Shown: one piece after another, positions 47,469 through 63,910 of the stretch
How the letters are laid out: every line of letters begins with the position of its first letter
Position numbering within the stretch: position 1 is the first letter of the stretch
Assembly: GCF_008254045.1 (NCBI RefSeq)
Contig: NZ_CP042425.1
Location: forward strand, 3,224,001 to 3,288,000
Direction of reading: 5' to 3'
Source of the DNA: Limnoglobus roseus
GTDB lineage: Bacteria; Planctomycetota; Planctomycetia; Gemmatales; Gemmataceae
Length of the DNA: 64,000 bases
The notes under the pieces: generated by a model
What the model was told of the DNA's origin: nothing
Seen by the model: the letters and a program-made list of their open reading frames with translations, nothing else
Database searches by the model: none
Translations under genes and position numbers: made by a program

Positions 47469-48200
47469 ATGACGGAAGCGGAGTGGCTGGCGGCGACGAA
47501 TCCGACAGGGCTACTCGGGTTCCTCCGTGGCCACGAAGAGTTCCGTAAGTTCCGGTTGTTCGCCTGCGCTTGTGCGCGTCGCGTTGTGCATCTCGTCCGG
47601 GACGGTCGGGCGAAGGCCGCCCTTGAGTTCGCCGAACAATTGGCAGACCGGGCGGCGGCGGCTCGAAAGGGGCGACCGGCAATCTACAAGGCGGGCCTTG
47701 CGGCGTGCGAGTTTCTGTGGGGGCAGCACCAAGGGCGGTTCGACAGCGGCGAGTTACTCGCCCACCTGGCGGAATCCAACGCGACCCACGCCGCCGTGAA
47801 GACCGCGGAAGCCGACGCCACGGTGGCGGCCGGGGGATGTACCGCGGCCGGTCTCGCCGCGGCGTACACATCGTGCCGCCCGCCCCGGCTCCCGACGCCC
47901 TTCCCACCCGGCCGGGGAGACCGGATCGCAGACGAGGAGTGGATACAGGCCACTCTTCTCCGCGACATCTTCGGCAACCCGTTCCGCCCCGTCACCTTCT
48001 CACCAACTTGGCTCACGCCCACTGTCGTCAGCCTCGCGGAAGGCATCTACGCCGATCGCGCCTTCGACCGTCTGCCGATCCTCGCCGACGCGCTCCAAGA
48101 CGCCGGGTGCGAGGACGCTGACGTGCTGGGCCACTGCCGGGGTGAGGGGGTTCATGTGCGCGGGTGCTGGGTCGTGGATGGCGTGCTCGGGAAGGGGTGA
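47469..48200 (+). CDS. MTEAEWL-family protein of Gemmata type
   Basis: The product has 243 residues and starts MTEAEWLAATNP, with KFRLFACACARRVVHLVRDGRAKAALEFAEQLADRAA. Its C-terminal half holds RDIFGNPFRPVTFSPTWLTPTVVSLAEGIYADRAFDRLPILADALQDAGCEDADVLGHCRGEGVHVRGCWVVDGVLGKG. The gene at 63236-63910 is a clear paralogue. This expanded planctomycete family has no assigned function. A Cys-rich LFACACAR segment and a final HxRGCWVxDxVLGKG are its hallmarks. GGAGGGCGGGCG precedes the ATG. Confidence 0.8.
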   Translation: MTEAEWLAATNPTGLLGFLRGHEEFRKFRLFACACARRVVHLVRDGRAKAALEFAEQLADRAAAARKGRPAIYKAGLAACEFLWGQHQGRFDSGELLAHLAESNATHAAVKTAEADATVAAGGCTAAGLAAAYTSCRPPRLPTPFPPGRGDRIADEEWIQATLLRDIFGNPFRPVTFSPTWLTPTVVSLAEGIYADRAFDRLPILADALQDAGCEDADVLGHCRGEGVHVRGCWVVDGVLGKG

Positions 48201-50375: not shown

Positions 50376-50705
50376 ATGGGCGTTCGAGTCGAAGTCCGCG
50401 ACGGCGAGTCCCTCGCAGAAGCGGTCAAGCGGTTCAGAGAATCAGTCTGGCGACAAGGCCCGCCGGGTGCCGGCCGGAAGCGGCCGAAGTGGCACAAGAG
50501 GCCGCTCGACTACTACCTCAAGCCGAGCGAGTTGGCTCGCCGGGACGATCTGCGGGATGCGTTCGAGACCTACGCCGGGGAGTGCTCCCGCCGACGATGG
50601 TTGTGCCTAATCCGCCGCCGCACCAAGCAGCGGAAGGAGCGATTCGGGGACGCCCCGGTGGTGTGCAAGTATCCAAGACCCCGGCCACTCCCGGGCTGGG
50701 CGTAA
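50376..50705 (+). CDS. bS21-like small basic protein
   Basis: The product has 109 residues and is very basic. VRVEVRDGESLAEAVKRFRESVWRQGPPG resembles the start of ribosomal protein bS21 (short strand, then a helix with ESLxEAxxRF), and KWHKRPLDYYLKPSELARRDDLRD resembles its YxKPSExRRR region. The last 45 residues (RRRWLCLIRRRTKQRKERFGD) are extra. It is probably an S21 paralogue, not the housekeeping copy. Whether it binds ribosomes or other RNA is unknown. S21 homologues occur in phages, which fits the accessory setting. Confidence 0.5.
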   Translation: MGVRVEVRDGESLAEAVKRFRESVWRQGPPGAGRKRPKWHKRPLDYYLKPSELARRDDLRDAFETYAGECSRRRWLCLIRRRTKQRKERFGDAPVVCKYPRPRPLPGWA

Positions 50706-51694: not shown

Positions 51695-53749
51695 TCACAG
51701 ATCCGGCATTCCCAGCTGCTTGAAGTAGGCCCTGTTCCGTCTCGTCGCGGAATCAAGCATCTGGGCGTACGTCAACGTCTCAATCTGCAGGCACAGTCCC
51801 TCCTCGTAGCTGTAGAGCGCTCCGTTCGGCTGCTCCTTATACCCTTCTTCTTTGAGCAAGCGGCGGAGCTTCTCAGTCATATCGGCCACGATGAAGCCAA
51901 AGAACCTGGTCGTCTCGTCGCCGGGTATCATCCGCCCCTGGTGGTCCCGCGCTTTGCCCCGACGAATCAGCTTGGCGTACTCCTTAATCTGTTTGTGAGG
52001 GTTCTCGTCGTCGTCGTATGCCTCGCGGCCCGGCCGCTTGAACTCGATGATCGTCACGCACACCGGGTTCTGTGTCGTCTCCGACGTCGAGTAGGCTTCG
52101 TGGAAGACGATAATGTCGGGCTCTTTTCCTTCCTTGCCCGGCTCGGGGTTGATCGGATCGAGCTTGTCGGCGCGAGTGTCGGAGGCCAGATACCGGTGCC
52201 AGTTCAGGCGTTCGTCGATGAGCCAGAGGTTGCAGTGGTCGAGGGAAACGCCGTCGGAAGTCTTCCGTAGCGGGAAAATGATCTGGTGGACGGCTTCCTC
52301 GAGTTGATGCGTGCCGTCGTCTCCCGCACTCAACAGCGAGGTCAACACGTCGACCACGGCCTTCCGGTGGCAGGTAAAGGCCCCGAGGGCCACGAGGTTC
52401 TCTTGTTGCGCCGCCGATGCGTACCGCTCGATCAACCGCTTCTTGCCGGCCTCGAGCATCTCTCCGGCCTTTGCGAGTTTCATCAACTCGGCGTGAAGCT
52501 GTTTCATCTCGTCTCGGTCGGCGAAGTGGCGGCCGGCGAGCGCCGTTAGAATCTCTGTCTCCGAGGCGTTGATCGCCAAGCTGTCGACGAGTTCTTCGTG
52601 ACGGTTGACGACCGCCCGCATCTCGGGAGCCTTTGACGCGACGACGTTCCTGATCCGTTCCTGTTTCTGTGTTCGCATTCTGGACAGGTCGTCGGTGAGA
52701 TAGCCTCGGACTTCTTGGCACGCCCGAGCTAAAATCTCGTCGCCCGTGGGTTCGTCGGTAAAGCTGTCGGCGGAAGCGAAGTTGAAGTCGGAGCGGGTTT
52801 CATTGACCCATTCGTTCAATGCCTTACCCGTCACCATTCCGAAATAAAACACTTCACCCAGGGCCGGGCGTTTAAGTGCCGTTTTCAGGTCCCGGATGTG
52901 ATTCGAGAGGGCGTAAGCCGTCACGAACCGGCGACGGGCACAGAACGCAAGTTGGTGACTACCGATCGCACCGCGGACCAAGTAGTGCTTGAGTTTGAAC
53001 AGCCGCTTGCGGACCTTGAACGTCACGTCTAAGGTGTCACACTGGTAGTGATTCTCGAAATGCTTTCGGAGGTCCATCTCGACCCCGCACTGTTCGTCCA
53101 CCAAAAGAAACTGGACCTTGGATGAAACGAGGAGTTGCTCAAGGTGGTGTTCGATCAGCCGGTTCGCGAGGATCTCGGTACGCTGGGGGCACGAGTACGC
53201 GGGTTGCAAACCCACGAGCCGCAGCAGGGTTCCCTCACTGTGGTCGGTTGCCACCCCGTTTCCAACCTCACGAACCCCGTGTTCGAGGTTGAAGACGATG
53301 TTCCGGTGTTGGAGAGCGGCGCCGTCGTGGTACACGCTCTCGATGACGGCCTTCTCGAAAGCCTTGAGCCAAAGCAACCGGCCCACCCCTTTACCCCCGC
53401 TCGAAACCTTCCGCGGCGAATCGGCCTCGCTAAACGAATCGAAGTTCTCCCGAGTGAAACCGACCCCTGTGTCCACGACGTCAAACCCCGTCACCGGGCC
53501 TACGCCCCCGCTCAGCCCGTCGAGGAGTGTGCCGGCCGGCGGCTGCCCTCGGACGACCCTTACGACGACACGATGCGACTTGTTCGCCGTATGACATTCC
53601 TCGATCGCGTCGAACGCGTTCGCCACCGCTTCGTACACGGGACGGAGGGCCTGATCCTTCCCCAAGGGCATGTTGCGGACGCGGTGCCGGAGGTTGAGTT
53701 TCACGCCGGCCCCCTGTTGCTGAGAATCGTTGGAGAAGATCGCTACCAT
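51695..53749 (-). CDS. MORC-like GHKL ATPase fused to a PD-(D/E)XK-type nuclease
   Basis: The product has 684 residues. The N-terminal ATPase has ALRPVYEAVANAFDAIEE (Glu40, Asn44, Asp47), DVVDTGVGFT (93-), SSGGKGVGRLLWLKAF (118-) and EGTLLRLVG, as in Hsp90/MutL/MORC GHKL domains. A helical, S5-like and coiled middle follows. Residues about 540-575 read PDIIVFHEAYS...VCVTIIEFKRP, the Asp / Glu-x-Lys pattern of restriction-like nucleases. Prokaryotic MORC-related ATPases linked to nucleases are known from restriction and conflict systems. It is a lone gene, likely anti-phage or anti-plasmid. ATG 53749 is chosen because the ATPase domain begins just after it; a TTG at 53821 is in frame. Confidence 0.72.
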   Translation of the reverse strand: MVAIFSNDSQQQGAGVKLNLRHRVRNMPLGKDQALRPVYEAVANAFDAIEECHTANKSHRVVVRVVRGQPPAGTLLDGLSGGVGPVTGFDVVDTGVGFTRENFDSFSEADSPRKVSSGGKGVGRLLWLKAFEKAVIESVYHDGAALQHRNIVFNLEHGVREVGNGVATDHSEGTLLRLVGLQPAYSCPQRTEILANRLIEHHLEQLLVSSKVQFLLVDEQCGVEMDLRKHFENHYQCDTLDVTFKVRKRLFKLKHYLVRGAIGSHQLAFCARRRFVTAYALSNHIRDLKTALKRPALGEVFYFGMVTGKALNEWVNETRSDFNFASADSFTDEPTGDEILARACQEVRGYLTDDLSRMRTQKQERIRNVVASKAPEMRAVVNRHEELVDSLAINASETEILTALAGRHFADRDEMKQLHAELMKLAKAGEMLEAGKKRLIERYASAAQQENLVALGAFTCHRKAVVDVLTSLLSAGDDGTHQLEEAVHQIIFPLRKTSDGVSLDHCNLWLIDERLNWHRYLASDTRADKLDPINPEPGKEGKEPDIIVFHEAYSTSETTQNPVCVTIIEFKRPGREAYDDDENPHKQIKEYAKLIRRGKARDHQGRMIPGDETTRFFGFIVADMTEKLRRLLKEEGYKEQPNGALYSYEEGLCLQIETLTYAQMLDSATRRNRAYFKQLGMPDL

Positions 53750-56540: not shown

Positions 56541-58757
56541 TCATTTGCCCGTGTTCAACTGCACGCCGTTGAAGAAGATCAGGTCCGCCGTCGGCGTCGG
56601 CTTGGCCCCGGGGAGGGCGTACAGGGGCGACGGCGCGGCCTTCGCGATGGCCCACCAGATCGGCCCGGCGGCGACCGTCGGCTCGGGCAGGCCGCTCGGG
56701 AATTGGGCCTTGACCTGGGGGAGGAGGAACGGGGCGACGGCGTACCCCGTGGTGAGCAACTCCGGCCGGCGGACGCCGTACGTGTACACGCCGGTGGCCA
56801 CGAACTTCAGGTGGCCGCTGTCCGCCTTCGTCGGGTTCTCGCGGAGGACGTTGGCGTGCTGGAAAACGAAGTTCGTGTCCGCGGCCGGCGGGTGCGGGTC
56901 CGGCTCCTGCGGGGGGACGCCGTACCGGACGGCCGTCCACCGGACCTTCCGCGTGGCCTTGCTCCGGCCGACGTTCCACGCCGGGTTCGGGTACGGCGTC
57001 CCGGTCTTCGGGTCGACGGCCGCGGCGTTCCGGACGACCCGGTCGCCCGTGTCGAAGTCGTCCTCGGTGGTGATCAGGTAGACGCTGTACGTGGACGGGT
57101 CGTCGACCGGGTCGGCCTTCGGCGGCTGGCCGATCGTCGCGCCGGCGGCGGGGTTTCCCTGGTACGGCCACGACGAGGGCGACGGGTTCGCGGTACTCGG
57201 GAAGGCGGGCGACCCGAACAACGACCCGGAGGCGGCGAGCGTGTCGGCGGTCAGGAGCGTGCCGCCGGCGTCGTTCGCGAAGGCAGGCGAGCCAATGCCG
57301 GGGAAGGCGAACAGGTCGGCGAGCGTCCCGGCCGACTCCGCGAACGGGATCGACACGCCCCACGCCGACGCCCCCTCCGCCTGCGGGGTAGAGCTTCCGC
57401 CCCCGACCGGGCCGACGGGGATCAGGTTTCCGATGATGTTGGCGATCTGTTGCGGCGTCAGCGGCCCGCCGGCCCCCGCGGCACCGCCCCCAACCTGGTT
57501 CGGAGTGCCGATCAGCACGCCGCCGACGTTTGCCGGCCCGCCAGCCCCGGCCGCGCCGCCGTTGGCGGGCCCGTTGTTGAGGAGGCCGAGTAGGGGGTTC
57601 GGGCCGGAGACGAGCGTTCGGGTGATCGTCGGGGCCGGGGGCACGGTCACGAGCGACCCGCACGGCTCCTGGAACGGCGGCCGGAGGAGGTCGGTCTCGT
57701 TCCGCGTGTCGGCGGGGATCGTGTACGGGTTAGAACCCTGCGGCAGCATTCCCGAGGGCGGGGCGGAGAACAGGTCACGACGGTAAGCCCCTGCTACCGT
57801 CGTCAGCTTCTTGATGTCGGCTAGAAAACCCAAGACAACAACGACTCGCTTGCGGTCCGCGGAGCCTTGAATCGAGTTGTGGAACACGGGTGCAATCCCC
57901 TCGGTCTGCACCTGTACCCCCGCCACGATGCTCAGGGCGATGGACAATGCACGCCCGGTCACCTCGCTGTACTTCCGATCGACGTTTCCAACGAGCTCGA
58001 CGCTGACAAGGCCCATCACTGCCGCTGTGCCGGGCTTCGTGTCAAACTTTGTCTCGATCTTGGCGGAAGCCGCCTCGTCGGGCGGGCGAAACTCGTACTG
58101 TTCCTCGGTTCGTGAATACTTCAGCGTCAGGGCGTCGTCCTGCCACTCAGCATCAAATTCGATTTCCTGATACCCCGGCAAGACGGCCGGGACGCCGGCG
58201 ACTTGCATCGCTTGGGCCTTCGTCAAGCTCCGGTCCCGGCAGAAGATCATGCCTTCGAGCCGCCGAGTTCGGTAGCCCTGCATATCTCGCGACTCGGTGT
58301 ACCGAAAGTGGTGGTTCAAGACCTTGCGAACGGTGTCGGTACACGGCGGCATGACCACTTCGACCACCACCTCGACTTCGAAGCACATTTCCGAGATGTG
58401 AACGGGCCGCACGCTGACGACTTTCGGGCCGTTTGCGGAATCGCGGTTCTGCTCGGGGTTGTTGGGGTTACCCGAGTCGCCGACCTGGATGATAGTCTTG
58501 CCGAACGGCGCGTACACGAAGTACCGCCGGTGTCGCATGAGGGACACTTTCAGCCGATCGAACGTCTCCGCCGGGGTTTCGTTACTCACCGATGGGGTAA
58601 GGCCGCGAGTGACGACCCCCTGCACGGTGATGGTGTGCTTCTCGTTAGTGACGTTGATATCGCCGGGATCGGTGATCTTCTCCGTCCGGACCTCGGAGCG
58701 GATAAAACTGGACATGGCTACGGAACCGAATTGCCAGGCCACAGAGGAATCTGCCAT
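56541..58757 (-). CDS. Large protein, possibly a phage-tail-like structural protein
   Basis: The product has up to 738 residues with no signal peptide. The first 300 residues are beta-rich (KHTITVQGVVTRGLTP, RRYFVYAPFGKTIIQVGD, EMCFEVEVVVEVVMPPC). Residues about 390-530 are low-complexity Gly/Ala/Pro with NPLLGLLNNGPANGG. A further domain follows (STYSVYLITTEDDFD, RWTAVRYGVPP) to the C-terminus, which ends DLIFFNGVQLNTGK. The architecture and neighbours (a Gly-zipper protein and a helical protein upstream on the same strand) suggest a tail or baseplate role, but no named family can be assigned. The start could be ATG 58715 instead. Confidence 0.55.
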   Translation of the reverse strand: MADSSVAWQFGSVAMSSFIRSEVRTEKITDPGDINVTNEKHTITVQGVVTRGLTPSVSNETPAETFDRLKVSLMRHRRYFVYAPFGKTIIQVGDSGNPNNPEQNRDSANGPKVVSVRPVHISEMCFEVEVVVEVVMPPCTDTVRKVLNHHFRYTESRDMQGYRTRRLEGMIFCRDRSLTKAQAMQVAGVPAVLPGYQEIEFDAEWQDDALTLKYSRTEEQYEFRPPDEAASAKIETKFDTKPGTAAVMGLVSVELVGNVDRKYSEVTGRALSIALSIVAGVQVQTEGIAPVFHNSIQGSADRKRVVVVLGFLADIKKLTTVAGAYRRDLFSAPPSGMLPQGSNPYTIPADTRNETDLLRPPFQEPCGSLVTVPPAPTITRTLVSGPNPLLGLLNNGPANGGAAGAGGPANVGGVLIGTPNQVGGGAAGAGGPLTPQQIANIIGNLIPVGPVGGGSSTPQAEGASAWGVSIPFAESAGTLADLFAFPGIGSPAFANDAGGTLLTADTLAASGSLFGSPAFPSTANPSPSSWPYQGNPAAGATIGQPPKADPVDDPSTYSVYLITTEDDFDTGDRVVRNAAAVDPKTGTPYPNPAWNVGRSKATRKVRWTAVRYGVPPQEPDPHPPAADTNFVFQHANVLRENPTKADSGHLKFVATGVYTYGVRRPELLTTGYAVAPFLLPQVKAQFPSGLPEPTVAAGPIWWAIAKAAPSPLYALPGAKPTPTADLIFFNGVQLNTGK

Positions 58758-59110: not shown

Positions 59111-59183
59111 AATTCAACCGGGCCCATTCTTCATTCTTTCTCTGGCTCTCTGTTGCTCTTCATCGAACTCCTTCGCCGCTTTT
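59059..59183. repeat. 34-bp perfect inverted repeat spanning two convergent gene ends
   Basis: Arms 59059-59092 and 59150-59183 are exact reverse complements with a 57-base loop. Each arm is coding, and in each gene it specifies KAAKEFDEEQQ in the correct frame. The two stop codons are only 3 bp apart in the loop. The structure could also act as a shared terminator hairpin. Confidence 0.9.
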
Positions 59184-60370
59184 GAGAATGACTCAGCCAG
59201 CGTCATGCTCTGCGCGTCGTCGCCAGGGAACAGCTTGTTCAACTGCTTGGCAATCTTCTCGACCGGCCAATTTGCCATCGTAGACAGGTAGTTCTCGATC
59301 GACTGGAAGTAGTTGTCAATCCGCGCCAGGATGATGTCCTGCTCCCTCTGGTTGTCCTTGTTCGCCTGGTCGCTCTCCATGAGCGTGCGGGCGGAACTGG
59401 AGATGCGGTCGCCCTTCTGCCGGCTCCGCAACTGGTCCCGAATGTCGCCCTCGGTCTGGACCTGATTCAGCAGCCCGGACATGCCCCCGAGTCGCTGGTT
59501 CACGTCATGGAGCTTTTTCGACGCCTCCTCCGCCCGCTTGCCGAACTCGTGGATCTTGCCGGCCACCTTGGCGGCCTCTCCGCCCACGTGTTCGCCGGCC
59601 TGCCCGCCCACCGCGGCCCCGACCCGTGCCCCCACCGGCCCGCCGACGACCGCGCCAACGGCGGCCCCGACCGTCGAGCCGATGACGTGGCCGGCGACCT
59701 TCCCCGAGGCGGACCCGGCCCGCGCCGCCCGCGACTCGCCGCCGCCGGGGCCGCCGACGTGGCGGACGGCCCCGACCACCCACGCGGCCGCGGCGGTGAC
59801 GGCCTTCGCCTTGCGGCCGAGCTTCGACTCGACGAACTTCGCCCCGGCGGCGCGAGCGACCCGGCCCGCCTTCGACGCGACGACCTTCCCGGCGACGGCC
59901 TTCACCCCGCGGCCGACCTTCGTGCCGACGACCTTCCCGGCCGCGGCCTTCGCCCCGCGGCCGAGTTTCGACCCGGCAAGTTCCACGACGGCCCGCCCCG
60001 CCCGCGTGTCCGCCAACCGACTGAGCAGAGCCGCGTTCTGCGGTGCGCCCGCACCCTTCGCGGCCCCCGCCCCCGAATCGCGCACCCCGCTCAACGCACG
60101 CGCGACCGCCGCCGCGGCCGCCCGGCCGATCAGGTCGCCGACGCGGTCCCACTGGCCGCCGGTCGGCTCGCCACCCCCGCCCCCGGTTCCGCCGCCGCGT
60201 CGCGCGACCTTGTCGGCGTCGAGTTCCACGCCGCGGGCCGGGTCGGGCCGGCGGGTCGGACCGCCTTGCCCCGGCGTCGGCGGGGGCGGCCGGTAGCTCG
60301 CCACGGCCGCCACGACCTCGTCGAGGCGGTGCAGCACGTCGGCGAGTTTCGTGTCCGGGGCGTCGGCCAT
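59114..60370 (-). CDS. Gly/Ala-zipper-rich protein, possibly tape-measure-like
   Basis: The product has 418 residues. The N-terminal 90 residues are Pro/Gly-rich. The middle has repeated blocks (GRGAKAAAGKVVGTKVGRGVKAVAGKVVASKAGRVARAAGAKF) and a glycine-zipper stretch (GSTVGAAVGAVVGGPVGARVGAAVGGQAGEHVGG). The C-terminal third is charged helix (RIDNYFQSIENYLSTMANWPVEKIAKQLNKLF). Glycine zippers insert in membranes, while repetitive helical proteins in this position act as tape measures in tails; both are inference. An 18-bp motif copy lies inside the gene and encodes KGAGAPQ. Confidence 0.55.
   Translation of the reverse strand: MADAPDTKLADVLHRLDEVVAAVASYRPPPPTPGQGGPTRRPDPARGVELDADKVARRGGGTGGGGGEPTGGQWDRVGDLIGRAAAAAVARALSGVRDSGAGAAKGAGAPQNAALLSRLADTRAGRAVVELAGSKLGRGAKAAAGKVVGTKVGRGVKAVAGKVVASKAGRVARAAGAKFVESKLGRKAKAVTAAAAWVVGAVRHVGGPGGGESRAARAGSASGKVAGHVIGSTVGAAVGAVVGGPVGARVGAAVGGQAGEHVGGEAAKVAGKIHEFGKRAEEASKKLHDVNQRLGGMSGLLNQVQTEGDIRDQLRSRQKGDRISSSARTLMESDQANKDNQREQDIILARIDNYFQSIENYLSTMANWPVEKIAKQLNKLFPGDDAQSMTLAESFSKAAKEFDEEQQRARERMKNGPG
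60039..60056 (+). repeat. 18-bp motif TGCGGTGCGCCCGCACCC, copy 5 (inside a gene)
   Basis: Exact copy within the 59114-60370 coding sequence. On the minus strand it specifies GAGAP in frame. A 14-base partial copy (GCGGGCGCACCGCA) is at 60584-60597 in the next gene. Confidence 0.65.
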
Positions 60371-63235: not shown

Positions 63236-63910
63236 TCACCCCTTCCCGAGCACTCCGTCGACGACCCAGCACCCGCGGACGTGAACCCCGTCGCCTCGGC
63301 AGTGTGCCAGAATCGCCTCCTCCTCGCACCCCGCGTCCTGCAACGCATCCGCGAGGATGGGAACGCGGTCGAACGCACGGTCGGCGTAGATGGCTTCCGC
63401 GATGGCAACGGTGGTCGGCGTGAGCCAGGACGGGGAGAACGTCACCGGGCGGAAGGGGTTGCCGAAGATGTCGCGAAATAGGTTGCAAATGTACCGGCCT
63501 GCAATCTTCTGAGGGATGACGCCGCCGAGCGGCAATTCCGTGGCCGTCATCATGAATGCCGCGTGGAAGGCTTCCGAGTTGGTCGCTGCGCCGACCATCT
63601 GAATCGCCACTCTGACTCCCACGGGCGTGCCGGCGGGCTGTTGAGAACGGCCCCGCATCGCCTCAGAGGCCATGTGCGAGGCGGCTAATTCCATTTTCGT
63701 CGCTCGCCCATCGGCGAACCGCTCGGCGACCTCCACGGCCCCTCGCAGGCGGTCGTCGGGCAACAACCCCCAGGTCACCCGACAGCAACCGCACGCGAAC
63801 AACCGGAGTTTGCGGCGACCGGCTTTCGTCCGCGGCATCTTGCACTCGGTCAGGTGAAACGCCATCCACTGAGGATTAGCCGCTTCGCTCAACCACTCCG
63901 CTTCCGTCAT
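63236..63910 (-). CDS. MTEAEWL-family protein, second paralogue
   Basis: The product has 224 residues. It starts MTEAEWLSEAANPQWMAFHL, with RRKLRLFACGCCRVTWGLLPDDRLRGAVEVAERFADG, and ends RDIFGNPFRPVTFSPSWLTPTTVAIAEAIYADRAFDRVPILADALQDAGCEEEAILAHCRGDGVHVRGCWVVDGVLGKG. The C-terminal half is almost the same as in 47469-48200, while the N-terminal half differs more. A strong GGGGAGGG precedes the ATG. Function unknown. Confidence 0.8.
   Translation of the reverse strand: MTEAEWLSEAANPQWMAFHLTECKMPRTKAGRRKLRLFACGCCRVTWGLLPDDRLRGAVEVAERFADGRATKMELAASHMASEAMRGRSQQPAGTPVGVRVAIQMVGAATNSEAFHAAFMMTATELPLGGVIPQKIAGRYICNLFRDIFGNPFRPVTFSPSWLTPTTVAIAEAIYADRAFDRVPILADALQDAGCEEEAILAHCRGDGVHVRGCWVVDGVLGKG

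What the first reader, a model, noticed from the sequence alone, without database searches (positions are those of the whole stretch)
51695..53749. Stand-alone MORC-like GHKL ATPase with a C-terminal PD-(D/E)XK-type nuclease
Seen: GHKL motifs (EAVANAFDA, DTGVGF, GGKGVGR) and a later PDIIVF...VTIIEFKRP pattern in one 684-residue protein. Known: MORC-type and MutL-type ATPases coupled to restriction-like nucleases occur in prokaryotic conflict systems. Inference: this is an anti-phage or anti-mobile-element effector of a planctomycete lineage, coded as one gene with no methylase or partner, in an accessory region. It is the best candidate in the window for a poorly described system.
Basis: partly seen in the sequence, partly recalled or inferred. 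Interest (0 to 1): 0.7.

Follow-up and report, generated by a model that had tools for sequence, protein, structure and literature searches.

The report
GHKL-ATPase Shedu-type defence nuclease
This is a single bacterial gene for an ATP-driven DNA-cutting protein of a family already described (paraMORC3, also called GHKL-type Shedu) and shown in cholera bacteria to block phages, so it is a divergent planctomycete member of a known defence family rather than a new system.

Summary
The ORF at 51695-53749 (-) encodes a GHKL ATPase joined to a C-terminal PD-(D/E)XK nuclease. The better start is the GTG at 53704, giving 669 aa. AlphaFold2 and Foldseek support GHKL plus an S5/transducer-like domain. 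Profile-profile comparison links the C-terminus to the Shedu SduA_C nuclease (97%, E 1e-10; controls at or below 1%). Both active sites are intact and conserved in 77 diverse sequences.

It is not a poorly described system. The architecture was published in 2008 as paraMORC3, including stand-alone members. In 2025 one such protein, VcSduA of Vibrio cholerae (Shedu type I-D), was shown to stop phages and to need both its GHKL glutamate (E27) and its nuclease lysine (K557). These correspond to E25 and K556 here, on the new start. The family has at least 515 genome loci, sits on plasmids and viral contigs, and its neighbours are rich in restriction-modification genes compared with a control. The window gene is solitary, accessory, and on a long branch.

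Best explanation: an ATP-gated, dimeric anti-phage nuclease. Defence activity, trigger and DNA substrate are not shown for this protein. Side finding: a gammaproteobacterial clade carries the gene last in a type I restriction operon, sometimes directly after a canonical Shedu gene.

The parts
51695..53749 (-).
51695..53704 (-). Preferred gene model: GTG start at 53704, 669 aa; motif I Glu becomes residue 25 and the nuclease Lys residue 556
   Evidence: AGGGGG at 53715-53710; many homologues place the Glu at residue 25-27; residues 1-13 of the long form model poorly
53710..53715 (-). Shine-Dalgarno-like AGGGGG, 5 nt before the GTG start
   Evidence: read directly; no test of function
53207..53692 (-). 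GHKL (Bergerat-fold) ATPase domain, residues 20-181 of the long form (approximate)
   Evidence: AlphaFold2 model; Foldseek hits to TRAP1/Hsp90, GyrB and Topo VI-B at E about 1e-10; Pfam HATPase_c in 6 of 12 relatives
53630..53632 (-). Motif I Glu40 (general base in GHKL ATPases; equivalent of VcSduA E27)
   Evidence: invariant in 77/77; VcSduA E27A loses defence (PMC12137116)
53456..53473 (-). Motif II DTGVGF (residues 93-98)
53378..53398 (-). Motif III GGKGVGR (residues 118-124)
52760..53182 (-). S5/transducer-like domain, residues 190-330 (approximate), with invariant Arg319
   Evidence: AlphaFold2 strands 212-307; Foldseek alignments run on through the GyrB 43-kDa and Hsp90 N-middle regions; Arg319 in 77/77. 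That Arg319 is the gamma-phosphate sensor is inference
52331..52744 (-). Long helical arm, residues 336-473, joining ATPase and nuclease
   Evidence: AlphaFold2 helices 336-350, 352-373, 397-427, 434-473
51698..52330 (-). C-terminal PD-(D/E)XK nuclease domain, residues 474-684, homologous to Shedu SduA_C
   Evidence: hhalign 97%, E 1.1e-10, controls at or below 1%; AlphaFold2 pLDDT 87; Foldseek top hits McrC, Cas4, MspJI, Can2, weak
52298..52300 (-). Glu484, first acidic residue of the E-D-ExK set
   Evidence: 77/77
52115..52117 (-). Asp545 of PD
   Evidence: 76/77; aligned with the Shedu Asp
52037..52045 (-). Glu569-x-Lys571 (E-x-K; Lys571 is the equivalent of VcSduA K557)
   Evidence: 77/77; aligned with Shedu EIKKP; VcSduA K557A loses defence

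Best explanation
The gene encodes a solitary anti-phage DNA nuclease of the paraMORC3 / Shedu type I-D (VcSduA-like) family. Shown here: the domain order GHKL - S5/transducer-like - long helical arm - SduA_C-type PD-(D/E)XK nuclease, both active sites intact, and an accessory distribution with defence-type neighbours for the family. Inferred from VcSduA and from GHKL enzymes: the protein forms a dimer whose ATPase domains close like a clamp on DNA, and the ATP-driven closure moves or releases the C-terminal nuclease so that it cuts invading DNA directly. The trigger is probably a feature of the DNA itself (a free end, a crossing or an odd structure), as for other Shedu proteins, but no step of the trigger is shown for this branch.
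For: Full-length AlphaFold2 model pLDDT 88, pTM 0.78. Foldseek to PDB: TRAP1/Hsp90, GyrB and Topo VI-B at E 1e-10 to 1e-11 over about 380-550 columns. C-terminal profile against a Shedu SduA_C alignment: 97%, E 1.1e-10, aligning D545, E569xK571 and Q587; reversed, column-shuffled, GHKL-part and linker controls all at or below 1%. Motif I Glu to nuclease Lys spacing is 531 residues here and 530 in VcSduA (E27, K557); five members have exactly E27 and K557, among them one from Vibrio lentus. Neighbours of 40 genome loci: leading Pfam families are Methylase_S, N6_Mtase, Eco57I, AAA_21 and HsdM_N, with SduA_C, AlbA_2, RhuM and integrase also present; the leading families of 20 control stretches from the same genomes are metabolic and regulatory, with no restriction family among those shown. 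Plasmid members lie beside type I RM, Shedu, CBASS-like SAVED, SIR2 and Abi genes; 39 viral contigs and one phage carry it. Published: VcSduA blocks Drexlerviridae and phage X29 without loss of the host culture, and E27A or K557A abolishes this (PMC12137116).
Against: No functional test of this protein or of any planctomycete member. It is on a long branch (2.22 changes per column), about 28-33% identical to relatives, so trigger and target may have drifted. The Pfam SduA_C model itself matches neither this protein nor the sampled relatives, so the Shedu link rests on profile-profile comparison. The nuclease Foldseek hits are weak (best E 0.011). The window has no recognised defence neighbours.
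Confidence: 0.82

Rival explanations
1. It is a nuclease that works together with restriction-modification systems: the GHKL part reads the state of DNA handled by a type I enzyme and the C-terminus cuts.
For: Iyer et al. place paraMORCs mainly in RM neighbourhoods. A gammaproteobacterial clade has the gene as the last gene of hsdR-AAA-hsdM-hsdS, or hsdR-AAA-hsdM-hsdS-sduA (L011, L016, L035, L042, L045, L048).
Against: Only 12 of 84 loci with at least 2 kb on both sides carry an HsdR/M/S-like gene detectable with these probes. The window gene has no RM neighbour. VcSduA acts alone in E. coli (PMC12137116).
Confidence: 0.1
2. It mainly acts against plasmids or other mobile DNA, or kills the infected cell, instead of cutting phage DNA in a cell that survives.
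For: Many family members sit on plasmids, 30 of 59 records typed as conjugative, and on phages, where inter-element competition is plausible. GHKL clamps bind DNA by topology in other families (general knowledge).
Against: VcSduA protects at all tested phage doses with the host culture preserved.
Confidence: 0.12
3. It is a housekeeping DNA-repair or topology protein related to MutL or Topo VI-B.
For: Fold kinship with GyrB, Topo VI-B and Hsp90.
Against: It is absent from most relatives: 2 of the 3 other genomes of its genus lack any match, the third has only a partial 33%-identity match, and 9 of 392 genomes of the phylum including its own have a match. The neighbourhood is not fixed. The taxa are mixed on the tree.
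Confidence: 0.03
4. The gene is decaying and inactive in this genome.
For: Long branch; a second, N-terminal-only copy elsewhere in the same genome is clearly dead (L002).
Against: Full-length frame without stops, all catalytic residues kept, coding-type codon profile.
Confidence: 0.05

Closest known systems
VcSduA, Shedu type I-D of Vibrio cholerae WASA lineage (PMC12137116)
   Same: Single gene; N-terminal GHKL ATPase, clamp-like middle, C-terminal Shedu-type PD-(D/E)XK nuclease; Glu-to-Lys spacing 530 against 531 here; essential residues E27 and K557 correspond to E25 and K556 (new start).
   Different: The planctomycete protein is far diverged; a Vibrio lentus member with VcSduA's exact residue numbering lies in a distant gammaproteobacterial clade. 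No phage test exists for this branch, and sequence identity to VcSduA could not be measured.
paraMORC3 (Iyer, Abhiman and Aravind 2008, PMC2292703)
   Same: GHKL + S5 + C-terminal RE-fold nuclease with E-D-ExK; a subset occurs as stand-alone genes with no conserved neighbourhood, in scattered lineages.
   Different: The 2008 paper stresses proteobacteria and Bacteroidetes; here it is a planctomycete. The link to Shedu was not made then.
Canonical Shedu (SduA, PF14082; reviewed in PMC12904381)
   Same: Homologous C-terminal nuclease (hhalign 97%); variable N-terminal sensor; single gene.
   Different: The N-terminus is a GHKL ATPase, not the EcSduA clamp; EcSduA is a tetramer, whereas the VcSduA authors model a dimer. 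The sequence is not caught by the PF14082 model.
MORC proteins and MutL
   Same: GHKL + S5-type ATPase module.
   Different: Iyer et al. state that paraMORC2-5 lack the motif that unifies MORCs; MutL's nuclease is of another type (general knowledge).

Membership tests
paraMORC3 | N-terminal GHKL ATPase with motifs intact | tested here: met
paraMORC3 | S5 domain after the GHKL domain | tested here: met
   AlphaFold2 strands 212-307 and Foldseek alignments running through GyrB 43-kDa and Hsp90 N-middle regions; domain limits not measured separately
paraMORC3 | C-terminal RE-fold nuclease with E-D-ExK | tested here: met
   E484, D545, E569xK571 conserved; PD-(D/E)XK fold hits (weak); Shedu profile match
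Shedu (type I) | SduA_C / DUF4263 nuclease domain | tested here: met
   Profile-profile 97%, E 1.1e-10 with controls. The single-model Pfam scan with PF14082 is negative, so this is a distant homologue
Shedu (type I) | Single-gene system with a diverse N-terminal regulatory domain | tested here: met
   No co-directional partner in the window; GHKL N-terminus
Shedu (type I) | Cleavage of DNA near ends, anti-phage activity | not testable with these tools
   Needs protein and phages
VcSduA orthologue (type I-D) | Same architecture and same place of the two essential residues | tested here: met
   Spacing 531 against 530; E25/K556 with the GTG start
VcSduA orthologue (type I-D) | Direct sequence match to VcSduA | not tested
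   The V. cholerae A1552 sequence was not held in the collections used
MORC | MORC-specific motif | not tested
   The motif is not spelled out in the section read
PADLOC-DB 2.0.0 systems | Match to any defence model | tested here: not met
   no model up to E 1

The most novel reading that the evidence does not exclude
In the gammaproteobacterial clade the GHKL-Shedu protein is an integral last subunit of a composite type I restriction operon (hsdR-AAA-hsdM-hsdS with or without a canonical SduA), so that restriction breaks are handed on to a DNA-end or DNA-topology-sensing clamp nuclease; solitary members such as the window gene would be detached relics that sense ends made by unlinked systems.
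Probability: 0.12. Interest if true: 0.5.

Novelty: new member of a known kind. Interest (0 to 1): 0.3.

Why it matters
The gene adds a deep, solitary planctomycete branch to a family whose one tested member is an anti-phage nuclease, and which the standard defence library used here (PADLOC 2.0.0) and the Pfam Shedu model both miss. The profile evidence links the 2008 paraMORC3 nuclease to Shedu by sequence, and the conserved gammaproteobacterial type I RM + Shedu + GHKL-Shedu operon gives a concrete, testable case of two Shedu-type nucleases stacked on one restriction system.

Tried and rejected
Pfam, NCBIfam and PADLOC scans of the single protein gave only sub-threshold or meaningless hits (the TIGR03111 glycosyltransferase hit at E 0.006 lies in the helical arm and is taken as a coiled-coil artefact). 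PDB sequence searches with the protein and with profiles found nothing useful. PADLOC on the neighbour set is swamped by redundant type I specificity models, so Pfam with a control set was used instead. Foldseek with the nuclease domain alone gave only weak hits and is treated as supporting, not decisive. Gu et al. 2025 on Shedu types is not held, so type I-D is cited through PMC12137116. The neighbour control used 20 stretches and its tally shows only the 25 commonest families, so no exact rate or p-value is claimed. The tree has weak support around the window protein (39%) and long branches, so no sister group is claimed.

Full report
OBSERVATION. The minus-strand ORF 51695-53749 is real: 684 codons, no internal stop, coding-type codon profile. 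A GTG at 53704 with AGGGGG just upstream is the likelier start: many homologues place the motif I Glu at residue 25-27 and the extra N-terminal residues are poorly modelled. On that start the protein has 669 residues, with motif I Glu at 25 and nuclease Lys at 556; residue numbers below are for the 684-aa form.

WHAT IT IS. Relatives were gathered from whole genomes of the phylum (9 of 392 with a match, including the window's own genome), plasmids (59 records, 49 covering at least 80%), phages (1), species genomes (at least 515 confirmed stretches, 80 kept) and viral contigs (39 loci). Nearly all kept loci match over the full length. In a 77-row alignment E40, N44, D93, G95, G97, G118, G121, G123, R319, E484, H488, W509, D512, D524, E569 and K571 are invariant; D545, R124 and Q587 are 76/77. 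The AlphaFold2 model is good (pLDDT 88, pTM 0.78). Foldseek against the PDB returns Hsp90/TRAP1, GyrB 43-kDa and Topo VI-B at E 1e-10 to 1e-11 over long alignments, which is the GHKL plus S5/transducer arrangement. Residues 336-473 are long helices. The C-terminal domain alone models well (pLDDT 87); its best PDB hits are PD-(D/E)XK nucleases (McrC, Cas4, MspJI, Can2) but weak (best E 0.011).

THE SHEDU LINK. The C-terminal alignment (75 rows) was compared by hhalign with 16 Shedu SduA_C sequences (the Vibrio fluvialis protein annotated as Shedu plus PF14082 hits from planctomycete and other genomes). Result: 97% probability, E 1.1e-10, 120 columns, with PD-D545, E569xK571, Q587 and the last strand-helix in register. 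Reversed, eight column-shuffled, GHKL-part and linker controls all stay at or below 1%. The PF14082 model itself does not hit this protein or the sampled relatives at single-sequence level, so it is a distant branch of that nuclease family.

CONTEXT. In the window the gene stands alone: the surroundings hold a PKD/FG-GAP protein, an HSP20 gene, and uncharacterised ORFs, with no recognised defence gene. It is accessory: of the three other genomes of its genus, two have no match and one only a 33%-identity partial match, and other family members of the taxon mostly lack it. GC of the 2-kb block 52-54 kb is 0.60 against 0.66-0.71 next to it, which is compatible with horizontal gain. For the family, neighbours within two genes at 40 loci (146 proteins) are led by type I specificity and methylase families, Eco57I, AAA_21 and HsdM_N, with SduA_C, AlbA_2, RhuM and integrase present; 124 proteins from 20 control stretches of the same genomes are led by metabolic and regulatory families, with no restriction family among the 25 shown. 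Plasmid examples lie beside type I RM, Shedu, SAVED-type CBASS, SIR2-plus-ATPase and Abi genes. The tree mixes phyla, though the test counts changes and is no proof of transfer. Phylum: L073 (Candidatus Brocadia WS118, Planctomycetota) is the same locus as G382, which is listed as of the window's phylum.

WHAT IS KNOWN. Iyer et al. 2008 define paraMORC3 as GHKL + S5 + a C-terminal RE-fold nuclease with E-D-ExK and note stand-alone members (PMC2292703). Adams et al. 2025 show that VcSduA, a GHKL + DUF4263 protein called Shedu type I-D, blocks T1-like Drexlerviridae in E. coli and phage X29 in V. cholerae; E27A and K557A abolish it; the culture survives at all tested doses; a dimer with a clamp-like middle is modelled (PMC12137116). 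The Glu-Lys spacing is 530 there and 531 here, and five members in my set have exactly E27 and K557, one from Vibrio lentus. A review states that EcSduA binds DNA ends through its N-terminal clamp and nicks at a fixed distance (PMC12904381). I could not get the VcSduA sequence itself.

MECHANISM. Shown: architecture, conserved active sites, nuclease homology to Shedu, family-level defence context. Inferred: dimerisation on ATP, clamp closure on DNA, release of the nuclease, direct cutting of phage DNA. The trigger is unknown.

SIDE FINDING. In Vibrio fluvialis (plasmid), Salinivibrio, Pseudoalteromonas, Rosenbergiella, Shewanella and Thalassotalea the gene ends an operon hsdR-AAA-hsdM-hsdS; in V. 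fluvialis and Thalassotalea a canonical sduA lies between, overlapping or abutting the GHKL gene; Litchfieldella also has sduA directly upstream. On the tree the sampled members lie in one gammaproteobacterial clade (Salinivibrio was not in the tree).

VERDICT. The reading of the domains is correct, and the defence role is very likely, but the kind is known. New member of a known kind; interest 0.3.

Noticed in passing
L011, L016, L035, L042, L045, L048 (and L055): Conserved gammaproteobacterial operon hsdR-AAA-hsdM-hsdS with or without canonical sduA, ending in the GHKL-Shedu gene; in L055 sduA lies directly upstream.
   Followed up: partly
L002 (own genome, C1:8608244-8608597, -): A dead copy: about 125 N-terminal residues of a GHKL relative (37% identity), then a broken frame and an ORF with helix-turn-helix domains of transposase type (HTH_29, HTH_23), probably IS630-like.
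   Followed up: partly
L014:2485-4509 (phage vB_RanS_PJN03): The phage member sits next to the integrase gene and is annotated as N-acetylmuramoyl-L-alanine amidase, which its sequence does not support.
   Followed up: partly
window 47469-48200 (+) and 63236-63910 (-): Two proteins of one family that start MTEAEWL and share the C-terminal stretch IFGNPFRPVTFSP...VHVRGCWVVDGVLGKG; no Pfam match.
   Followed up: no
window 50376-50705 (+): Short ORF whose start resembles ribosomal protein bS21 (MGVRVEVRDGESLAEAVKRFRESV); not confirmed by Pfam.
   Followed up: partly
window 56544-58757 (-) and 59114-60370 (-): Two well-coded ORFs without family: a 738-aa protein with no Pfam match and a 418-aa protein with a weak glycine-zipper match.
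   Followed up: no
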